From positions 1 to 64,000 of IMG/VR virus record IMGVR_UViG_3300020027_000005: a stretch of DNA of 64,000 nt; one strand, written 5' to 3'. The notes beneath the pieces are model-generated. The model saw only the letters and a list, made by a program, of their open reading frames with translations, did no database searches and had not been told where the DNA came from. This stretch comes from a virus. Made by a program: the position numbers and the translations under genes. This document shows, in pieces, positions 12,974-63,780 of this stretch. Numbering within the stretch: the first letter of the stretch is position 1; every line of letters starts with the position of its first letter.

Positions 12974-13495
12974 ATGAACGAATTCGAACTGCACGGCCGG
13001 GTTGTCGCACAGGCCTTCTTCCTCGAGCTCGAGAAGATTGCGATGGCCGATCCGATGGACATCGTTCACGGTCTTCGAGCAAACCAGGCTCTCCGGAGTG
13101 CAGCCTCTCCGAGTCTTGTGCAGAAGCTCAAGCCGGGAACGGGGAGCTTCTTCGGGGCCGTGAAGGACAAGGTCCGTCTTCACTTGAAGGGACGGAATGT
13201 TCGGAAGAGTGCGATCAAGGACCTCGATAGCGCTTCCAAGTACACACCGGGGGCGGATGACATCGAGGACAACGCCAACCTCGCCAGGGCTGCTCGAGGT
13301 CGGGAAGCCGAACATGAACTTCACGGGAAGCCGGGTGAGTCGAGCTTCTTCGGCGGAAAGAAGAAGAAGGAGCCGGTGAGGGGTCACCGGGCCAGGCTTC
13401 GGGACCTCGCCTTCGGTGCGGGAATCGGTGGAGCAGGCGTGATCGGCACCAGCATGTACCTGAAAGGTGGACAGGCTGAGCCCGGCTACGAGTAA
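12974..13495 (+). CDS. Small ELEKIA-box protein with C-terminal hydrophobic segment
   Basis: A 173-residue protein. The N-terminus reads FELHGRVVAQ then AFFLELEKIA (residues ~14-23), almost the same box as in the preceding protein. The middle is basic. EHELHG near residue 112 also occurs in the protein encoded at 17905-18636. The C-terminus has a Gly/Ala-rich hydrophobic stretch at ~145-165. A strong GGAG lies upstream, and its stop overlaps the sigma-factor start (TAATG), so the two are co-translated. It may be a virion or membrane-associated partner; the function is unknown. Confidence 0.6.
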   Translation: MNEFELHGRVVAQAFFLELEKIAMADPMDIVHGLRANQALRSAASPSLVQKLKPGTGSFFGAVKDKVRLHLKGRNVRKSAIKDLDSASKYTPGADDIEDNANLARAARGREAEHELHGKPGESSFFGGKKKKEPVRGHRARLRDLAFGAGIGGAGVIGTSMYLKGGQAEPGYE

Positions 13496-14214
13496 TGGAA
13501 AAGGCCGAAAAGAAGACGAGGGCGGCCCAAGAGCTCGAACTCTGGCGCGACTGGAAGGCCAACCCTTCTGACGCCACGCTCGAGCCCTTGATGGCGTCCA
13601 TGCAAAACGTTGTTCAACAGCGGGTGAACCAGTTTCGTGGAGCTCCCGTTCCACCTGCCGCTGTTCAGGGTTTTGCAAACGTCCAGCTCAAAAAGGCCTT
13701 CCATACCTACAGCCCGGACAAGGGAGCTTCTCTCGCGACCCATGCGAACTGGTACTTGAAGAAGGTCCAGACCTTCGTCATCAAGCACCAGAACATCGGG
13801 AAGATTCCAGACCAGCGAGCGAACAACATCGCCGAGTACCGAGCTGCGAAAGAGGAACTCCGAGAGACGCTGGGGATGGAGCCAGACGCTCTCTCCTTGT
13901 CGGAACATCTCGGCTGGAGTCAGCGAGAGGTCGAGCGGATGGAGGCAGAGCAGAGAAAGGACCTCATCGCTTCCAAGAACCCAGAAGCTGACCAGCTCGC
14001 CGAAACCTACTCGAACCGAGAGAGGGAAGTTCTACGGTACATCCACTACGACCTGACCCCGGATGAGCGCCTGGTCTTCGAGTACACTCTGGGGTTGTAC
14101 GGAAAGCCGCAGATCTCGGCCACCGAGATTTCGAGAAGGATGAGTATCTCTCTTCCGAAGGTCAGCCGAATTCGAGCGAAGATCGACAAGAAGCTTCGTG
14201 CCCGGGGTGTGTAG
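13495..14214 (+). CDS. Sigma-70-family RNA polymerase sigma factor
   Basis: A 239-residue protein with group-3-like sigma architecture. Region 2 lies at about residues 30-105, with the core-binding/melting pattern LKKAFHTYSPDKGASLATHA and NWYLKKVQ. A region 3-like helical segment is at 115-155 (ALSLSEHLGWSQREVERME). Region 4 lies at 187-235, starting TPDERLVFEY and ending in a helix-turn-helix (ATEISRRMSISLPKVSRIRA). There is no region 1.1. It presumably directs a core RNA polymerase to phage promoters; the obvious partner is the fused beta-beta' enzyme at 57610. Its place inside the virion operon suggests late expression or packaging. That link is inference. Confidence 0.85.
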   Translation: MEKAEKKTRAAQELELWRDWKANPSDATLEPLMASMQNVVQQRVNQFRGAPVPPAAVQGFANVQLKKAFHTYSPDKGASLATHANWYLKKVQTFVIKHQNIGKIPDQRANNIAEYRAAKEELRETLGMEPDALSLSEHLGWSQREVERMEAEQRKDLIASKNPEADQLAETYSNREREVLRYIHYDLTPDERLVFEYTLGLYGKPQISATEISRRMSISLPKVSRIRAKIDKKLRARGV

Positions 14215-54664: not shown

Positions 54665-55333
54665 GTGCCTGAGCCTCTTGTTCGCAGAGCCGGTCTTCTC
54701 GAAGACGAACAGGGTCTGCACCTCATCACTCTGAGTGTGCTTCTGCTCGATCTACTCGGGCCGGAGTACTTGTTCTGGACTTCTGAGGCGCTCCGAGAAG
54801 AGCTCCAGGAGAGGTACGGGAAAATCGGCGTCGTGACCTGGGAGCGGGTTCAGGCACTCCGAATTCTCCACGTCCATGACGCCTACTGGCAGGAGTGGGA
54901 AGTCTTCGAGAAGGTCACGGCTGCCATCTGTGGAGAGCCTCCGATCTTCAGCCTGGTTCAGCCACAGGAAGCAGAGGAAGTGTTCATCTCTCTGTCGACG
55001 GCTTCGCGAATCGACCAGCATGACTTCGACGAAGATGTTCGGAGCTACATGGTGGCGGCGTGCCTGAACGACGGGCTCTGGTATTTCGAAGAGCCCGTCG
55101 CAGCGGTCGGAAGTTCGGAGCTCGTGGAGTTGGACACTCGACAGGGGATTCAGAGACCATTCGGGCTCATCTCGGCAGAACTCGAAAAGTCCAACAAGTT
55201 CCGTCCGGAGTCAGACGACCCTGTGCTCACCCAAGTGAATCGGGTTCTAGAGGTGCGGCAGGCGCTTCGACTGTACAATGAGGCGGTCGATAGGCAGCTG
55301 CTCCAGCTCCCACAACTGCTGAAGGGTGTTTGA
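54665..55333 (+). CDS. Unknown protein coupled to portal
   Basis: A 222-residue protein with a GTG start three bases after the previous stop and AGGG upstream. It is mainly helical and acidic; residues 20-40 are hydrophobic (LHLITLSVLLLDLLGPEYLF) but read as a buried helix rather than a membrane segment. The stop overlaps the portal ATG (TGATG). A head-assembly or portal-associated role is inferred from coupling only. Confidence 0.55.
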   Translation: MPEPLVRRAGLLEDEQGLHLITLSVLLLDLLGPEYLFWTSEALREELQERYGKIGVVTWERVQALRILHVHDAYWQEWEVFEKVTAAICGEPPIFSLVQPQEAEEVFISLSTASRIDQHDFDEDVRSYMVAACLNDGLWYFEEPVAAVGSSELVELDTRQGIQRPFGLISAELEKSNKFRPESDDPVLTQVNRVLEVRQALRLYNEAVDRQLLQLPQLLKGV

Positions 55334-57246
55334 TGGCGGGCATTGGGACAACTGGATTCGGACCCGGAAGCGCTTCCCGGTTTTCGAACAACCAGTCGAC
55401 AACAGGGAACAACGTTCGATACCCGTCCCCCTGGTGGGACATTTCGAACATGGACCTTCCGAGGTCCGTGAAGCACCTCTTCAAGTGGTGCCTCTACCAT
55501 GTTCTCGTGAATCCACTCGTTGCTCCAGTTGTTCGGAAGATGGCGGCCTACCCCATCACCGAAATCATCATCGAGGACGAGCCGCACGAAGGCTTCCAGA
55601 AGCACAAGGAGCGGTGGGAAGACTGCCTCTTCAAGACCCTGAACATCGACCAGTTTCAGCTGGAGATCGGGCTCGACTACCACGGCTACGGGAATGCCCT
55701 GGTCTCGCTGCTCACTCCGTTCCACAAGGTTCTGACCTGCACCCACTGCAAGTACGAGGAGCGGATCAAAAAGCTGAAGTTCGGTGAGGTGTGGGACTTC
55801 AAAGAGTTCAAGTTCATCCTGCACTGTCCAAAATGCAAGATGAGTGCGACCGCGAAGGTCGACGATGTATCGTACAGGTCTTTCCGGGACTTGAAGATCA
55901 TCCGATGGAACCCGGCAGACATCGACATTGATTTCAACCCGATCACTCGAGTGGCCGAGTACGCGTACAACATTCCGGAACGGGTGAAGACCAAAATCCT
56001 CCGGAAGAACAAGCGCTACTTGGAAGAGATTCCACAGGTCATCTTTCAGGCCATGAAGGAGCAGCGAGCTGTCCTTCTGAACCCAGACAACCTGTACCAC
56101 TTCAAGGCCCCGACTCCGTCTCTGCCGTCGAGTGACGAAGGGTGGGGCTACCCGCCGATCCTTCCGGCATTGAAGGACTCGTTCTACTTGCAGCAGATGA
56201 AGAAGGCGCAGGAGATGGTGCTTCTCGAGCACATGCTCCCACTCGACATCTTCTTCCCGGCTTCAGCCGACGCGAATGCGAATCCCTATCAGATGATCAA
56301 CCTCCACGACTGGAAGCAGCGGGTGGAGGCGGAGATCACTCGCTGGAAATGGGACCCGAACTACAAGCCCATCATGCCCATTCCCGTCGGGCATCAGCGA
56401 ATCGGAGGGAACGGAAAGGCCCTCATGCTCACCCAGGAGATTCGAGCCTGGTCCGAGCACATCATCGCTGGCATGGGAGTTCCTCAGGAATTCGCTTTCG
56501 GTGGTCTGACCTGGTCCGGGTCCAGCGTCTCTCTCCGGATGCTCGAGAACCAGTTCTCGAACTACCGGTCGATGCATGAGAATTTCCTGCAGAACTGGCT
56601 CATCCCCAGGATCGCCAACTACATGGCGTGGTCTGAAATCTCCATCCATCTCCGTGACTTCAAGATGGCCGACGACATGCAGCTCAAGCAGCTGCTGATC
56701 ACGTTGAACCAGATGAAGAAGATCTCCGACAAGACCCTCCTCGCCGAGTTCGGGCGTGATGCGCTCGAAGAGTCGAAGCTGATGGAGCAGGAGATGCAGC
56801 GCCAGATGCAGATGCAGCGGACGCAGATGATGTACACGACCCAGATCCAGGTCGAAGCTTCGGCGATCCAGATGAAGGGCCAGATGAAGATGCAGGAACA
56901 GCAGATGAAGGCCCAGCAGAAGGCGATGGGTGGCCAGGCTGTGGATCCGCAGACTGGAATGCCGATGCAGGGTGCCCAGGGCGGAGGAGTTCCAGGCACT
57001 CCGGCGCAGGGTCCGCAGGGTGGACAGGAAGGCCAGAGCGTCGATGTACGTCAACTCGCAGAGGCGTACGGGAAAAAACTGGCGAACATGCCTCCAGAGC
57101 AGGCAGCCCCGATCCTCCATCGGATGTCCCAGGAGAATCCGCAGCTCCATATGCTCGTGATGCAGGCCATGCAGACGAACACGACTGCGGACATGCGCCC
57201 TCTGCCGGAACAGCGCCCTCCGACACGAGAGACGGGACTGGTCTAG
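55333..57246 (+). CDS. Portal protein with zinc-finger insertion
   Basis: A 637-residue protein; ATG 55333 overlaps the previous stop. Portal-like features include LDYHGYGNALVSLLTPF near residues 115-133, a wing with EYAYNIPERVK, and the loop GMGVPQEFAFGGLTWSGSS near 383. An inserted C136-x2-C139 and C165-x2-C168 pair forms a probable zinc finger. Residues ~470-540 are a Met/Gln-rich helix that could line a crown or barrel. The C-terminal ~80 residues are Gly/Pro/Gln-rich. It would form the dodecameric portal ring. No terminase is in this window. Confidence 0.65.
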   Translation: MAGIGTTGFGPGSASRFSNNQSTTGNNVRYPSPWWDISNMDLPRSVKHLFKWCLYHVLVNPLVAPVVRKMAAYPITEIIIEDEPHEGFQKHKERWEDCLFKTLNIDQFQLEIGLDYHGYGNALVSLLTPFHKVLTCTHCKYEERIKKLKFGEVWDFKEFKFILHCPKCKMSATAKVDDVSYRSFRDLKIIRWNPADIDIDFNPITRVAEYAYNIPERVKTKILRKNKRYLEEIPQVIFQAMKEQRAVLLNPDNLYHFKAPTPSLPSSDEGWGYPPILPALKDSFYLQQMKKAQEMVLLEHMLPLDIFFPASADANANPYQMINLHDWKQRVEAEITRWKWDPNYKPIMPIPVGHQRIGGNGKALMLTQEIRAWSEHIIAGMGVPQEFAFGGLTWSGSSVSLRMLENQFSNYRSMHENFLQNWLIPRIANYMAWSEISIHLRDFKMADDMQLKQLLITLNQMKKISDKTLLAEFGRDALEESKLMEQEMQRQMQMQRTQMMYTTQIQVEASAIQMKGQMKMQEQQMKAQQKAMGGQAVDPQTGMPMQGAQGGGVPGTPAQGPQGGQEGQSVDVRQLAEAYGKKLANMPPEQAAPILHRMSQENPQLHMLVMQAMQTNTTADMRPLPEQRPPTRETGLV

Positions 57247-57609: not shown

Positions 57610-60600
57610 ATGTCGAACTTGAGCCCGGAAATGCAGTTCGAGTCGCTGAAGTCCAGCCTCTCCGGGACCCTGAAGGGAATGTTTCCCATCGAGACGAGGG
57701 GTGGGAATTCCATCGTCCTCGAAGAAGTGGAGTTCAAGGACGAGAAGGGCAGCGGAGACCTTCGGGAGCAGCAGAAAGCTCTCCGTGAGGCCAAGAGCTG
57801 GTCCATTCCGGTCTACGGAACCTTCAGCACGAAGAACAAGAACGGAACGGAGACCGATCGGAAGCGCGTTCTGATGATGCACCTGCCTCGTACGACTGAT
57901 CGTTTCGGGTACATCGTCGATGGGAACGAGTACCAGATCCTCAACCAGTTTCGACTGAAGTCTGGTGTGTACCACCGGATGGCTCCAGACGGAGATGCGC
58001 TCGCAGAGTTCAATCTCGCGAACTCGGACCAGTTCGCAAACGGAAAGAGCTTCAAGCTCAGATTGGTTCCGAAGACTGCGGTCTTCTACGTCGACCACCG
58101 CAATTCGAGTGTCCCGCTCTACCCCCTTCTCAAGTCTGTCGGAGTGACCGACGAAGATCTCGAGAAGGCGTGGGGAAAGGAAATCCTCGAACGGAACCAG
58201 GCGAAGGGAGCAGAAGCTCGGTCGTTCGGAGCCCTCCGTCGGGCTGTGGGTGCAGAGCTCCCCGGCGTAGATGGCTCCGAACTTTTCGGGAAGCTGCTGG
58301 CCAAGACGAAACTCCTTCCGGAGACCACGGAGAAGACTCTCGGAAAGGCCTACGCGTCCGTGACTCCGGAGTTGTTGGCCCAGAGCACGAAGCAACTCCT
58401 GGAACTCTCTCGTGGAGCTCGGGCCGAGGACGATAAGACCTCTCTCGAATACCAGGGGATGTACTCGGCGAACGACCTGCTCTCTGGCCATCTCCAGAGG
58501 AAGGCAGGTCTGATCAAAAGGAAGATTCAGACGAACCTGGAGAAGAAGAAGGGTGTTCGGTTGATCGTGCCGACGGACACGTTTGACCAGGCTCTTCGGT
58601 CCTTCTTCTCCACTTCCCTGGTCTCGCAGCCCGAGCAGACGAATCCTCTCGAGATGCTCTCTGGAGCACTCAAGACGACGATCATGGGGGAGCAGGGAGG
58701 CATCAAATCCAGCTTCGCGATCTCCGAGAATGCGAAGCTCGTGAACCCTTCTCACCTGGGATTTCTGGACCCGATCCACACGCCAGAAGGTGAAAAGACA
58801 GGCGTGTCTCTTGCGCTGCCTCTCGGGGCTGGAAAGCGAGGGAACGAGATCGTCTCCACCTTCTGGAATGCGAAGACCAAGAAGCGGCAGGAGATCTCTG
58901 CTGGAGAGGCACTCCACGCCACCGTGGCTTTCCCGGACCAGTACGTTCAGAAGGGTTCGGGGATGTCTCCGGTCGCTCCGAAGGTGAAGGCGACGAAGGA
59001 CGGGAACATCGTCTACGTCAGCCATCGGGAGGTCGACTACGTCATCCCGAGTCCGCGAGCAGTATTCGGAGTCTCCTCGAACCTGATCCCGTTCTTGCAG
59101 AACAACCAGGGCAACCGAGCGATGACAGCAGCTCGGCAGCAGGAACAAGCAGTTCCTCTTCTCTACCGTGAGGAGCCTCTGGTCCAGGTGAAGACCGACG
59201 GAAAGGCGACCTTCGAGGAGATCCTCGGAGAGAGCTCTGCTCGGAACTCCCCTGTGGATGGGGAGATTCTTCGTGTTGAGAGAGACGCCATCATCATCAA
59301 GGACAGCAAGGGCGAGAAGCACGAGATTCAGTTCTACAAGGACTTCGCGCTCAAAGGGAACACCCTCTACGACTCCGACGTGAAGGTGAAGGCCGGAGAC
59401 AAGGTGAAGAAGGGAGACCTTCTCGCCGACACGACGTTCACGAAGAATGGGAAGCTCGCTCTCGGTACCAATCTTCGAACTGCCTACATGGCGTTCAACG
59501 GGTACAACTTCGAGGATGGCATCGTTATTTCTGAGGACGCTGCCAAAAAGCTCACAAGCCTACATGTCCATCAGAAAGACATCCCGTTCGACACGGACAC
59601 TGTGCTCGACAAGAAGAAGTTCCTCTCGCAGTACCAGTATGGGTTCGGGAAGGAGCAGCTCGAAAATGTGGGCGAGGACGGAGTCATCAAGGTCGGCTCC
59701 CGCGTGAAGGAAGGAGATCCTCTCCTCCTGGCTCTGAGGAAGCCGAACGAGTCGCAGCTCCGCAAGCAGATCATGGCCTTCCGGCGAGGGCGTCCCGACA
59801 AGTTCCGGGACGGCTCACTGGCTTGGGACCACGAGGCTCCCGGCATCGTCACGGACGTGGTGAAGCGGGGAGACCAGGTCGTGGTCTACGTGAAGACCGA
59901 GGAGCCTGCGCAGGTAGGTGACAAGCTTGTAGGGCGGCACGGGAACAAGGGAATCATCACGCGAGTGGTTCCGCAAGCAGAGATGCCCTACTCCACGGAC
60001 GCGAAGGGCGAGAAGCAGCACGTCGATATCCTCATGAACCCCCTTGGGGTCCCCGGGCGTATCAACCTCGGCCAGATCCTGGAGACGGCTGCTGGGAAGA
60101 TCGCCACAAAGACCGGGAAGACCTACGAAGTCAAGAACTTCGAACACGGGAAGGACTACCTCACCGACATCAAGGCAGACCTGAAGAAGAACGGGCTCTC
60201 GGATAAGGAAGCCCTCTTCGATCCGACGACCGGAAAGCACTTCGAACAGGAAGTGATGACCGGGAATCAGTACATCTTGAAGCTGAAGCACATGGCTACG
60301 AAGAAGATCTCCGCCCGCTCGGGCTCGGGCGGTGAGGGATCCTTCTACGACGTGAACCATGCCCCGAGTTCGGGAGCCCCTCACGGTGGACAGGCCATGG
60401 ACCCGCTCGGGCTCTACGCCCTGTTGGCTCACGGAGCTCGCGAGAATATCTCGGAGATGTACACCTACAAGTCGGACAAGAACGACGCCTTCTGGGACGC
60501 TATCCGGGAAGGGGCACCGATTCCGCCCCCGAAGACGCCGTTCGTGTACGACAAGTTTCTCAAGTATATGAACGCGCTTCGCGTGGATGTGAAGAAGGAA

Positions 60601-63600
60601 GGGAACTCTCTTCAGCTGATGCCGTTCACCGAACAGCAGGTTCTGGAGATGAGCTCTGGCGAATTGAAGGAACCCTCCCTCGTGGTTCGAGGAAAGGACC
60701 TGAAGCCTCTGCCCGGAGGTTTGTTCGACGAGAAGCTCACCGGCGGAAAGGAGGGAACCCGGTGGACGCACTTCAAGCTCGCCGAGCCTATGCCGAACCC
60801 GATGTTCGAAGAGGCGATCAAGAAGTTGACTGGACTCTCTGACAACCAGTTCAGGAGCCATATCCGGGGCGATGTCGAGGTCAACGGTAAGAAGGGAGGT
60901 GAGGCGGTCGAAGAGCTTCTCAAGCGCATCAACGTGAAGAAGCTGCGAGAGGACCTCGAGTCGAAGATCGGAAAGGCCAAAGGTGCTGGTCGAGACAAGC
61001 TCCACCAGCAGTTGAGAATCGTGAAAGCCTTGGACGAGGCCAAGCTCTCCCCCACGGTCTACATGATGCGGAGTGTTCCGATCCTGCCTCCGATCTTCCG
61101 ACCGGTTTCGGCGAAGCCGGATGGTTCACTCTCGTCTGACGATCTCAACGGCCTGTACAAGGACATCGGGGCCGTGAATGAGTCGCTGACTCTTCTGAAG
61201 TCGTCCGACATTCCGCAGTCGATCGTGGCGCCCACTCGGATGGAGCTCTACGATGGGCTCCGGGCCATGACCGGACTCGGTGGCTCCCTGACTCGGGAGT
61301 ACCGCGGAATCCTGGATATCATCTCTGGGAAAACACGCAAAGGCGAGTCGGCCGGTGAAGGATCCAGCAAGGGTGGGTTCTTCCAAAAGTCCGTGATGAA
61401 GCGCCGTCAGGACTTCTCGGCTCGATCCATCATTACTCCCGAGCCCCGTATGGGAATCGACGAGATCGGTCTCCCGCAGGAGATCGCCTGGACGATGTAC
61501 CAGCCCTTCATCGAGAAGGAGCTCATTCGTCAGGGCTACAAGCCGCCGGACGCTATCGATGAGGTTCGGAAGCGGACTCTGGTTGCGGAGAAGGCGCTCT
61601 TCAGAGCAGTCGAAGACAGACCCGTTCTTCTGAAGCGTGACCCGGTTCTTCACAAGTTCAACGTGATGGCGTTCAAGCCGAGACTCGTGAAGGGAAAGGC
61701 AATCGAAATCCACCCCCTCGTCACCGGTGGGTTCAACGCCGACTTCGACGGCGACACCATGTCGGTCTTCCTTCCGGTCACCTCTCCAGCAGTGAAGGAG
61801 GCCCAGAACCTCTACCCGTCGAACAACCTCTTCAGCCCGACCACGGGCGCGGTCATGTACACGCCCGGTCACGAGGCCCTGCTCGGTACCTACCTGCTCT
61901 CCCTTCCCGGGAAGAAGACTGGAAAACGCTTCAAGAACACCGAAGACGCCCAGTCTGCTCTTCGGAAGGGAGAGCTCAAAAAGACTGACATCGTTCGAAT
62001 CGGTGGGCACGAGACCACTCTCGGCCGACTGGAGATCGAGGCGAAGCTTCCAGCCTGGCTCCAGGAGACAGGGAAGAAGCCGGTTTCTGAGATGCGGATC
62101 TACGACAACAAGACCACCAAGGGCTTGTTGATGCAGGTCGCGAAGCGGGACCATCTCAAGTACGGGGAGATTGCGAACCACCTGAAGGACATCGGAAACG
62201 AGAACTCGACGAGAACCGGATTCTCGATCGGACTCTCGGACTTCGATGTTGTGAATAAGGTGGGTCGAGACAAGATCATCGCGGCTGCAGAAAAGCAGCA
62301 GGTGAAGATCAACAGCTCGAAGCTCTCTGTGCAGAAGAAGGAGGAGAAGGTCGTCGAGGTTCTGACGAAGGCGAAGGACCAGCTCGAGGACCTCTACAAC
62401 GCAGGCCTCAAGAAGGACCCGACGAACATCTACAAGATGATGATCTCTGGTTCTCGGGTGAGTCCCGGACAGTTGAAGCAGATCGTCTCTTCGCCTGCCC
62501 TGGTCTCGGATTCGAAAAACAGAATGGTGCCATATATTATCCCCAGGTCGTACTCCGAGGGGATGGACATGGCGTCGTACTGGACGACCATGCACGGCGC
62601 TCGGAAAGGCGCACTTCAGAAGACCCAGGAGGTCTCGAAGCCTGGCGCACTCTCGAAGCTCCTCGTGAACTCGACCATCAACCAGCTGGTGACCGAGGAG
62701 GACTGTCGAGCCGGGGACGGGATCACGATGTCGGTCGACAACCACGACGTGGCCGACCGCTACCTGGCTGCACCCGCTCGATTCGGAGGAAAGCGAATTC
62801 GGGCTGGAGAGCTGATCACTCCGGAGCTCCTGGCCCAGGCCCGAAAGGCCCAGGTCAAGACGCTTACGGTTCGAAGCCCTCTTCGGTGCCAGGCAGAGCA
62901 TGGTGTCTGCAGACACTGCATGGGTCTGACGGAGGGAGGGAAGAGCTACGACATCGGAACGAACATCGGGGTCATCGCCGCACAGGCCGTAGGTGAGCCT
63001 AGCACCCAGCTCTCACTGTCGGCATTCCACACTGGAGGAACTGTTGGTTCCCGCGGTTCGCAAGCAGTTTCGACCTTCGGCCGGTTGAGCCAACTCCTCA
63101 CCGTTCCTCGGAACATTCCGAACGAGGGGGCTCTGGCGCTTCATGCAGGGAAGGTCACGAGCATCGAGGATGCTCCGCAGGGCGGCCAGTACGTCTACAT
63201 CAACAAGACCCAGCACTACGCCCCTGCGACACAGAAGCTCCAGATCAAAAAGTTCGACACCGTGAAGGCTGGGGATGAGCTCACCGACGGAGTCACTGAT
63301 CCGAAGAAGCTCCTGGCTCTTCGGGGTGTTCGGGACACGCAGGACTACCTGACGAGGTCGATGATGGAGGTGCTTTCGGAAGTAGCACCGGTGAAGCAGC
63401 GCAATGTGGAAGTCGTCGTTAGGTCGATGACTGATATCGCCACGGTCGAGGATCCGGGCGGGCATCCGGACTGGACCTCTGGAGATGTTCGGCCGGTTTC
63501 CATCATCGCTGCATGGAATGCGAAACATCGAGGCAAGGGGAAGCCGGTCAAGTACTCCACTCTCGTGAAGGGCGTGGACGTTCTTCCGAATGAGATGCAG

Positions 63601-63780
63601 GAGGATTGGATCGCTCGACTCAACTTCCAGAACCTCTCTCGAACTCTGACCCAGGCTTCTCGAGAGGGGTGGCACGCCAACATCCACGGCTTCAATCCCA
63701 TTCCGGCCGCAGCACAAGGTGCAGAGTTCAACAGAGCAGAGCGGAAACTCAAGCCGGGGGAACATAAAGGCCAGTACTGA
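57610..63780 (+). CDS. Fused beta-beta' multisubunit-type RNA polymerase
   Basis: One 2056-residue protein. The beta half (about 1-1020) has GNEYQILNQFRLKSGVYHR, DPIHTPEGEKTGVSLAL, GYNFEDG (631-637), GRHGNKG near 776 and the switch region HGGQAMDPLGLYALLAHGAR. The beta' half (about 1036-2056) has GGLFDEK, RRQDFSARSIITPEPRMG, catalytic NADFDGD (N1376, D1378, D1380, D1382), a bridge helix with MHGARKGALQ, four Zn2 cysteines (C1699, C1760, C1767, C1770) and trigger loop GVIAAQAVGEPSTQLS, H1807. The N-terminal beta' zinc finger and large lineage insertions are absent. It should be a DNA-directed RNA polymerase core, with the sigma at 13495 as candidate partner. Confidence 0.95.
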   Translation: MSNLSPEMQFESLKSSLSGTLKGMFPIETRGGNSIVLEEVEFKDEKGSGDLREQQKALREAKSWSIPVYGTFSTKNKNGTETDRKRVLMMHLPRTTDRFGYIVDGNEYQILNQFRLKSGVYHRMAPDGDALAEFNLANSDQFANGKSFKLRLVPKTAVFYVDHRNSSVPLYPLLKSVGVTDEDLEKAWGKEILERNQAKGAEARSFGALRRAVGAELPGVDGSELFGKLLAKTKLLPETTEKTLGKAYASVTPELLAQSTKQLLELSRGARAEDDKTSLEYQGMYSANDLLSGHLQRKAGLIKRKIQTNLEKKKGVRLIVPTDTFDQALRSFFSTSLVSQPEQTNPLEMLSGALKTTIMGEQGGIKSSFAISENAKLVNPSHLGFLDPIHTPEGEKTGVSLALPLGAGKRGNEIVSTFWNAKTKKRQEISAGEALHATVAFPDQYVQKGSGMSPVAPKVKATKDGNIVYVSHREVDYVIPSPRAVFGVSSNLIPFLQNNQGNRAMTAARQQEQAVPLLYREEPLVQVKTDGKATFEEILGESSARNSPVDGEILRVERDAIIIKDSKGEKHEIQFYKDFALKGNTLYDSDVKVKAGDKVKKGDLLADTTFTKNGKLALGTNLRTAYMAFNGYNFEDGIVISEDAAKKLTSLHVHQKDIPFDTDTVLDKKKFLSQYQYGFGKEQLENVGEDGVIKVGSRVKEGDPLLLALRKPNESQLRKQIMAFRRGRPDKFRDGSLAWDHEAPGIVTDVVKRGDQVVVYVKTEEPAQVGDKLVGRHGNKGIITRVVPQAEMPYSTDAKGEKQHVDILMNPLGVPGRINLGQILETAAGKIATKTGKTYEVKNFEHGKDYLTDIKADLKKNGLSDKEALFDPTTGKHFEQEVMTGNQYILKLKHMATKKISARSGSGGEGSFYDVNHAPSSGAPHGGQAMDPLGLYALLAHGARENISEMYTYKSDKNDAFWDAIREGAPIPPPKTPFVYDKFLKYMNALRVDVKKEGNSLQLMPFTEQQVLEMSSGELKEPSLVVRGKDLKPLPGGLFDEKLTGGKEGTRWTHFKLAEPMPNPMFEEAIKKLTGLSDNQFRSHIRGDVEVNGKKGGEAVEELLKRINVKKLREDLESKIGKAKGAGRDKLHQQLRIVKALDEAKLSPTVYMMRSVPILPPIFRPVSAKPDGSLSSDDLNGLYKDIGAVNESLTLLKSSDIPQSIVAPTRMELYDGLRAMTGLGGSLTREYRGILDIISGKTRKGESAGEGSSKGGFFQKSVMKRRQDFSARSIITPEPRMGIDEIGLPQEIAWTMYQPFIEKELIRQGYKPPDAIDEVRKRTLVAEKALFRAVEDRPVLLKRDPVLHKFNVMAFKPRLVKGKAIEIHPLVTGGFNADFDGDTMSVFLPVTSPAVKEAQNLYPSNNLFSPTTGAVMYTPGHEALLGTYLLSLPGKKTGKRFKNTEDAQSALRKGELKKTDIVRIGGHETTLGRLEIEAKLPAWLQETGKKPVSEMRIYDNKTTKGLLMQVAKRDHLKYGEIANHLKDIGNENSTRTGFSIGLSDFDVVNKVGRDKIIAAAEKQQVKINSSKLSVQKKEEKVVEVLTKAKDQLEDLYNAGLKKDPTNIYKMMISGSRVSPGQLKQIVSSPALVSDSKNRMVPYIIPRSYSEGMDMASYWTTMHGARKGALQKTQEVSKPGALSKLLVNSTINQLVTEEDCRAGDGITMSVDNHDVADRYLAAPARFGGKRIRAGELITPELLAQARKAQVKTLTVRSPLRCQAEHGVCRHCMGLTEGGKSYDIGTNIGVIAAQAVGEPSTQLSLSAFHTGGTVGSRGSQAVSTFGRLSQLLTVPRNIPNEGALALHAGKVTSIEDAPQGGQYVYINKTQHYAPATQKLQIKKFDTVKAGDELTDGVTDPKKLLALRGVRDTQDYLTRSMMEVLSEVAPVKQRNVEVVVRSMTDIATVEDPGGHPDWTSGDVRPVSIIAAWNAKHRGKGKPVKYSTLVKGVDVLPNEMQEDWIARLNFQNLSRTLTQASREGWHANIHGFNPIPAAAQGAEFNRAERKLKPGEHKGQY

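What the first reader, a model, noticed from the sequence alone, without database searches (positions are those of the whole stretch)
57610..63780. Single-chain bacterial-type beta-beta' RNA polymerase encoded by a phage
One 2056-residue ORF contains recognisable bacterial beta and beta' halves in order, with NADFDGD, bridge helix, Zn2 site and trigger loop intact. Known phage multisubunit-type RNAPs (phiKZ, AR9/PBS2) split these halves over several proteins, and single-chain two-barrel enzymes (YonO, crAss-like) are far more divergent. Natural rpoB-rpoC fusion is known in bacteria such as Helicobacter and Wolbachia. A near-canonical fusion in a phage suggests separate capture and reduction of a bacterial enzyme, possibly able to work without alpha.
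Basis: partly seen in the sequence, partly recalled or inferred. Interest (0 to 1): 0.92.

Follow-up and report, generated by a model that had tools for sequence, protein, structure and literature searches.

The report
Phage virion polymerase, beta-beta' fused
A tailed phage carries a nearly complete bacterial-type RNA polymerase whose two large subunits form one protein; it belongs to a widespread phage lineage that has no alpha or omega gene but keeps its own sigma factor, and a cultured cousin packs this enzyme inside the virus particle.

Summary
It is not an artefact or host contamination: about 96 of 145 dereplicated related phage loci in IMG/VR carry the same full-length fusion, selection across the junction is purifying, and both halves fall in one phage clade apart from bacteria. 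So it is not a one-off capture. It belongs to, or next to, the deep phage RNAP lineage reported in 2020 (mReC), whose main text does not describe a fusion. One derived sub-clade (Salmonella phage Arash, Vibrio phages D69/D148/D181) re-split the chain at about residues 1466 and 1095; in three-chain members 'beta' still carries the first ~90 residues of beta'. The beta' N-terminal zinc ribbon is absent in all 88 aligned one-chain proteins; no alpha or omega was found in any genome tested, complete Arash included. A dedicated sigma (window:13495-14214) occurs in 29 of 32 records. In Arash the homologous RNAP is the most-detected virion protein, and sigma and helicase are also in the particle. Best reading: an alpha-free, sigma-directed virion RNAP. 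New variant of a known kind.

The parts
57610..63780 (+). single-chain beta-beta' RNA polymerase, 2056 aa
   Evidence: homologues; models
57610..60630 (+). beta part, residues 1-1007 (altered rifampicin-pocket segment, flap, DPBB-B)
   Evidence: alignment; Foldseek/VIA to bacterial beta
60631..63777 (+). beta' part, residues 1008-2056
   Evidence: alignment; Foldseek/VIA to bacterial beta'
59917..59952 (+). DPBB-B motif GDKLVGRHGNKG (residues 770-781); K772 and K780 100% conserved in 88 one-chain sequences
60745..60765 (+). place of the absent Zn1 ribbon (residues ~1046-1052): the 4-Cys ribbon of bacterial beta' is replaced by a few residues; 0 Cys here in all 88 one-chain sequences
60895..60897 (+). 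position (codon 1096) at which the beta / beta'N split occurs in the derived three-chain relatives
61735..61755 (+). catalytic NADFDGD, residues 1376-1382; D1378, D1380, D1382 100% conserved; site of inteins in some relatives
62008..62010 (+). position (codon 1467) of the beta' split found in Arash/Vibrio-type relatives, after the DPBB-A region
62704..62919 (+). Zn2 site C1699, C1760, C1767, C1770 (96% conserved)
62956..63084 (+). trigger-loop region, with invariant H1807
55330..57246 (+). portal protein homologue (Arash gp204, E 5e-86); homologues found in 73 of the related loci
54665..55333 (+). 222-aa ORF of unknown function with homologues in 45 related loci
13495..14214 (+). dedicated sigma-70-like factor, 239 aa (homologue of Arash Gp10, a virion protein)
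   Evidence: PMC10585845
6845..8614 (+). DNA helicase homologous to Arash gp217, a virion protein
   Evidence: PMC10585845

Best explanation
This is a DNA-dependent RNA polymerase of the bacterial beta/beta' type in which both catalytic subunits are one polypeptide, in a phage lineage that has done without alpha and omega. The covalent tether takes over part of alpha's assembly role. Promoter choice is given by a phage-encoded sigma-70-like factor (window:13495-14214), which docks on the retained beta' coiled coil. The enzyme, sigma and a helicase are packed into the virion, enter the cell with the DNA and start phage transcription independently of the host RNAP. Shown here: fusion, conservation, purifying selection, one RNAP per genome, sigma co-occurrence, absence of alpha/omega hits, absence of the Zn1 ribbon, bacterial-type predicted fold. 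Shown by others in phage Arash: RNAP, sigma and helicase detected in purified virions. Inferred: activity without alpha, sigma docking, injection, early-gene role, rifampicin insensitivity, and that the window phage behaves like Arash.
For: Domain order and motifs. AF2 halves pLDDT 85.6 and 86.9, matching bacterial beta and beta' over most of their length. 87 one-chain and 9 one-chain-plus-insert proteins among 145 dereplicated loci; the inserts tested are inteins, typical of essential active genes. dN/dS 0.02-0.08 where it could be computed, including the junction. One RNAP locus per record in 27 records. Alpha: 0/28 (PF01193) and 0/27 (PF01000), controls 13/14 each; omega: 0/32 over cut-off. 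Sigma in 29/32 records; coiled coil aligns with bacteria. Virion content of Arash: Gp206 3516 spectra, Gp216 1210, sigma Gp10 467, helicase Gp217 1148, MCP 1333 (PMC10585845); homologues of all of these except the MCP were identified in the window.
Against: No activity data for any member. The window record is a 76-kb fragment in which no MCP or terminase was identified, so its own virion content is inferred. Arash's authors note that the enzymes may be carry-over from high expression. Host alpha could still be recruited. Sigma is only a sub-threshold match to Pfam regions 3 and 4. No promoter motif emerged.
Confidence: 0.72

Rival explanations
1. Same enzyme, but non-virion: made during infection to transcribe middle/late genes; its presence in Arash particles is carry-over.
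For: Arash's authors raise carry-over themselves. The gene lies beside the portal gene, as a late-expressed gene might.
Against: In Arash it gives more spectra than any other virion protein, with sigma and helicase also abundant. There is one RNAP locus per genome, so the two-RNAP virion/non-virion scheme of phiKZ does not apply.
Confidence: 0.2
2. The single chain borrows host alpha (and perhaps host sigma) and works as a modified host-type holoenzyme.
For: Both halves keep a near full-size bacterial fold. Fused beta-beta' in Helicobacter (PMC9696931) still works with alpha (own knowledge).
Against: No phage alpha in any genome tested; own sigma co-conserved in 29/32. Jumbo-phage RNAPs show that beta/beta'-type cores can work without alpha (PMC7598289).
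Confidence: 0.2
3. A recent, separate capture and fusion of rpoB-rpoC from a bacterial host.
For: Domain order matches the rpoB-rpoC gene order of bacteria; fusion is known in Helicobacter.
Against: 26-30% identity to cells, 56-58% to another phage. One phage clade with 99-100% support for both halves and the whole. Fusion shared by about 96 distinct phage proteins.
Confidence: 0.04
4. Assembly artefact or host contamination.
For: Metagenomic contig.
Against: Same fusion in dozens of independent metagenomes, junction under purifying selection, rather even GC3 along the ORF, portal gene upstream.
Confidence: 0.01

Closest known systems
mReC RNAP: multimeric-RNAP-encoding Caudovirales (Weinheimer & Aylward 2020, PMC7481178)
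   Same: Phage beta and beta' still alignable with bacteria, forming one deep clade apart from cells; found in IMG/VR and other metagenomes.
   Different: That paper treats beta and beta' as subunits; searching its main text, the words 'fused' and 'fusion' occur only for crAssphage and neither sigma nor alpha subunit is mentioned. Its MCP family PF07068 was not found in any of 32 records here, but that search had no working control.
Salmonella phage Arash Gp206+Gp216 and Vibrio phages D69/D148/D181
   Same: Same clade; beta plus N-half of beta' in one ORF; Arash portal, sigma, helicase and baseplate-type genes homologous to the window's.
   Different: C-half of beta' is a second ORF; AADYDGD instead of NADFDGD; about 30-32% identical to the window protein. 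The Arash paper calls Gp206 'beta' and the word 'fused' does not occur in it.
Fused rpoB-rpoC of Helicobacter/Wolinella/Wolbachia (NCBIfam PRK09603, PRK14844)
   Same: beta and beta' in one chain in the same order (PMC9696931).
   Different: About 2840-2890 aa in the models; 549.7 bits against a cut-off of 5372; bacterial enzymes with alpha and the Zn1 ribbon (last two from own knowledge); independent fusion.
Jumbo-phage vRNAP/nvRNAP (phiKZ, AR9)
   Same: beta/beta' type, no alpha/omega; a beta' split after DPBB-A also occurs in the Arash-type sub-clade.
   Different: 4-5 polypeptides, two RNAPs per phage, no recognisable sigma, very divergent sequence (PMC7598289).
Single-chain two-barrel RNAPs (crAss-like phi14:2 gp66, P23-45 gp64/gp96, YonO)
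   Same: Phage two-barrel-type RNAP in one polypeptide; some are virion enzymes (PMC10770324).
   Different: Those are reduced and barely alignable with cellular RNAP; this one keeps near full-size bacterial beta and beta'.

Membership tests
bacterial-type beta/beta' two-barrel RNAP | DxDGD catalytic triad and conserved DPBB-B lysines | tested here: met
   D1378/D1380/D1382 and K772/K780 100% in 88 sequences
bacterial-type beta/beta' two-barrel RNAP | full-length beta and beta' folds | tested here: met
   VIA Z 42.4 over 849 residues and Z 29.9 over 1015 residues
bacterial-type beta/beta' two-barrel RNAP | beta' N-terminal Zn1 ribbon (4 Cys) | tested here: not met
   0 Cys in this region in 88 sequences; present in the five bacteria aligned
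bacterial-type beta/beta' two-barrel RNAP | alpha and omega subunits encoded by the same genome | tested here: not met
   0/28 (PF01193), 0/27 (PF01000), 0/32 omega over cut-off; complete Arash genome included
bacterial-type beta/beta' two-barrel RNAP | DNA-dependent RNA synthesis | not testable with these tools
   needs purified protein
mReC (PMC7481178) | RNAP in a phage clade separate from bacteria | tested here: met
   support 99-100 for whole protein and each half
mReC (PMC7481178) | matches to both beta and beta' models, at least 800 aa, NADxDGD | tested here: met
   NCBIfam rpoB 375.9 and rpoC 497 bits, NADFDGD present; the original COG models were not at hand
mReC (PMC7481178) | MCP of family PF07068 (MCP detected in only 8 mReC contigs), TerL of PF03237 | tested here: inconclusive
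   PF07068 0/32 but no control rang; Arash MCP does not match it, Arash TerL matches PF03237 at 3.8e-5
virion RNAP | enzyme present in mature particles | not testable with these tools
   reported for homologue Arash Gp206/Gp216 (PMC10585845); not known for a one-chain member
fused bacterial beta/beta' (PRK09603) | score over the curated cut-off | tested here: not met
   549.7 against 5372 bits
jumbo-phage phiKZ/AR9 RNAPs | core divided over 4-5 chains, no recognisable sigma | tested here: not met
   one chain; sigma in 29/32 records

The most novel reading that the evidence does not exclude
A whole phage lineage runs transcription with a two-component holoenzyme, one tethered beta-beta' chain plus a co-packaged phage sigma, with no assembly subunits. 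The covalent fusion made alpha dispensable, and later fission of this chain at fixed sites produced the split phage polymerases of the Arash type, offering a route by which split alpha-less phage RNAPs in general could arise.
Probability: 0.4. Interest if true: 0.8.

Novelty: new variant of a known kind. Interest (0 to 1): 0.62.

Why it matters
How a beta/beta' RNAP can assemble without alpha is an open question for phage enzymes. A single-chain enzyme that keeps near full bacterial architecture, with its own sigma, is a much more tractable test object than the 4-5-chain phiKZ or AR9 enzymes, and a cultured relative (Arash) exists. The lineage also shows fusion coming before fission, by beta' residues left on the 'beta' chain of three-chain relatives, and gives a natural series of one-, two- and three-chain versions of one enzyme. 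It also suggests that the 2020 'multi-subunit' phage RNAP lineage may be mostly single-chain.

Tried and rejected
Host contamination and misassembly: rejected. Apparent splits in L307 and L317: they are in-frame TGA at conserved Trp positions, not real splits. Apparent split in L239: a stretch with stops inserted in beta; in L320: a likely frameshift near the C-terminus. Shared promoter motif upstream of genes in the 76-kb record: no 7-mer stood out. PF07068 capsid test for mReC: no match, but no working control. Close relatives of the Rhizobium TM30 separate beta' in IMG/VR: none with a single-sequence query. Long branches of Carin-5, YerA41 and TM30 in the half trees meet other long branches, so their placement is not used as evidence. 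Literature on fused beta-beta' in phages: searches found none in the held library, which lacks most subscription papers and bioRxiv preprints. A careful (bootstrapped) IQ-TREE run did not finish; the quick mixture-model tree is quoted.

Full report
What is there. The window is the first 64 kb of a 76,482-bp linear virus record. window:57610-63780 (+) is one uninterrupted ORF of 2056 aa. Pfam places Rpb2 domains 3 and 6 and then Rpb1 domains 1 to 5 in order. Aligned with bacterial beta and beta', the beta C-terminal region ends and beta' begins at about residue 1007 with practically no linker: 'RVDVKKEGNSLQLMPFTE' meets 'QQVLEMSSGELKEPSLVV', the equivalent of 'IRSWSFGEVKKPETINYR'. The halves were modelled separately (pLDDT 85.6 and 86.9) and match solved bacterial beta (Z 42.4, 849 residues, 3.5 A) and beta' (Z 29.9, 1015 residues, 3.8 A). 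The best sequence matches in the PDB are all bacterial; no solved relative from this phage group appears among the 60 shown.

It is not an artefact. Three alignment-based scans of IMG/VR gave, with two isolate records, 232 related loci, 145 after dereplication. Of these, 87 encode the full-length enzyme in one ORF of about 2000-2200 aa and 9 more in one ORF of 2429-2908 aa. Close pairs of one-chain homologues show dN/dS of 0.02-0.08 where it could be computed, including the junction. The portal gene (homologous to Arash gp204, E 5e-86) lies directly upstream of the RNAP in the window, and portal homologues occur in 73 related loci. The best matches kept from a scan of 84,980 bacterial and archaeal species genomes are ordinary two-gene rpoB-rpoC at 26-30% identity.

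Relationships. In a tree of 55 phage and 20 bacterial sequences the phage enzymes are one clade with 100% support; the window pairs with L028 at 58% identity. The beta half and the beta' half give the same result separately (99-100), so both halves share one history. A mixture-model tree again nests the split forms inside the one-chain forms. The lineage matches the description of the deep mReC RNAP clade of Weinheimer and Aylward (PMC7481178). Searched for the words, that paper's main text uses 'fused' and 'fusion' only for crAssphage. Its filter (at least 800 aa and NADxDGD) would exclude the split relatives seen here, so I infer that its 97 contigs are mostly one-chain; I could not check this.

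Fusion first, fission later. Leaving aside recoded, frameshifted or interrupted copies, splits occur at two fixed places, about residues 1466 and 1095, and in one sub-clade. Arash Gp206 and the Vibrio phage D69 protein are beta plus N-half of beta' (1525-1527 aa), with the C-half of beta' separate. In three-chain members (L075, L080, L082 and others) the 'beta' chain ends at about residue 1095, so it still carries about 90 residues of beta' (...GELKEP...GGLFD..TGG...NPVFE...). That is a footprint of an earlier fusion, independent of the tree's root. The 1466 split lies after DPBB-A, the same kind of place as the split in cyanobacteria and in jumbo-phage RNAPs (PMC7598289).

Anatomy. In 88 one-chain proteins the three catalytic aspartates, the DPBB-B lysines and the trigger-loop histidine are invariant, and the Zn2 cysteines are 96% conserved. 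The beta' N-terminal Zn1 ribbon is absent in all. The beta' coiled coil that docks sigma region 2 in bacteria aligns. The beta segment that binds rifampicin in bacteria lacks the THKRRxSAL signature ('LSGALKTTIMG' in the window), so resistance is predicted, not shown.

Partners. No alpha (PF01193 0/28; PF01000 0/27) and no omega over cut-off (0/32) was found in records up to 208 kb and in the complete Arash genome, while controls rang. Each of 27 records has exactly one RNAP locus. A sigma-70-like protein, window:13495-14214, is homologous to Arash Gp10 (E 7e-20) and occurs in 29 of 32 records. The window also has homologues of Arash gp217 (helicase), gp6, gp8, gp12, gp13 and gp14.

Function. 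In Arash virions Gp206 was the most-detected protein (3516 spectra), with Gp216 (1210), helicase Gp217 (1148) and sigma Gp10 (467), against 1333 for the major capsid protein (PMC10585845). The authors consider early transcription or carry-over. With one RNAP per genome, its own sigma and no alpha, the most economical reading is a packaged, sigma-directed, alpha-independent polymerase. The virion role of the one-chain form, independence from alpha, sigma docking and injection are inferred.

Limits. The scans were capped and started from fused sequences, though one used split-type queries and one used deep members. The window record is incomplete. Literature searches covered open-licence papers only. 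mReC membership rests on RNAP phylogeny; the capsid criterion was inconclusive.

Noticed in passing
L033, L038, L047, L051, L060, L061, L065, L066, L078 (relatives): Large inserts of 290-512 aa (up to two per protein) sit in conserved motifs: NADFDG^D, GDK^L, HTPE^G, the Zn2 cysteines, the trigger loop AFH^T. The six tested by Pfam carry LAGLIDADG domains, three of them also intein-splicing matches: inteins in the RNAP active site.
   Followed up: partly
L307:9944-15930 (+); also L317:12179: In-frame TGA codons fall at conserved Trp positions of the RNAP in L307 (205-kb phage, whose stretch also has a tmRNA gene; its sigma reading frame holds one TGA too) and once in L317, suggesting TGA read as Trp in these phages.
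   Followed up: partly
L239:11531-12484: A stretch of about 950 bases with stops lies between two parts of beta (after residue ~498): possible intron or homing element.
   Followed up: no
record G000:C1 63790-64704 (L004:1790-2704), just downstream of the RNAP: Glycosyl hydrolase family 6 protein (PF01341, E 4e-44); unusual cargo next to the polymerase; a radical-SAM-like gene lies further downstream.
   Followed up: no
phages collection, records such as OR844998, OR846602, AGRM01000005, AFYI01000006: Records filed as phages with a beta/beta' pair at 27-29% identity to the query; AGRM01000005 is a bacterial contig, and the others look like host chromosome filed as phage.
   Followed up: no
PHROGs phrog_25354 and phrog_24349: Both are labelled 'unknown function' but are clearly RNAP beta' and beta families (381 and 320 bits to the window protein).
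   Followed up: no
window:54665-55333 (+): 222-aa ORF of unknown function, upstream of the portal gene in the window, with homologues in 45 related loci; no Pfam or PHROG match.
   Followed up: no
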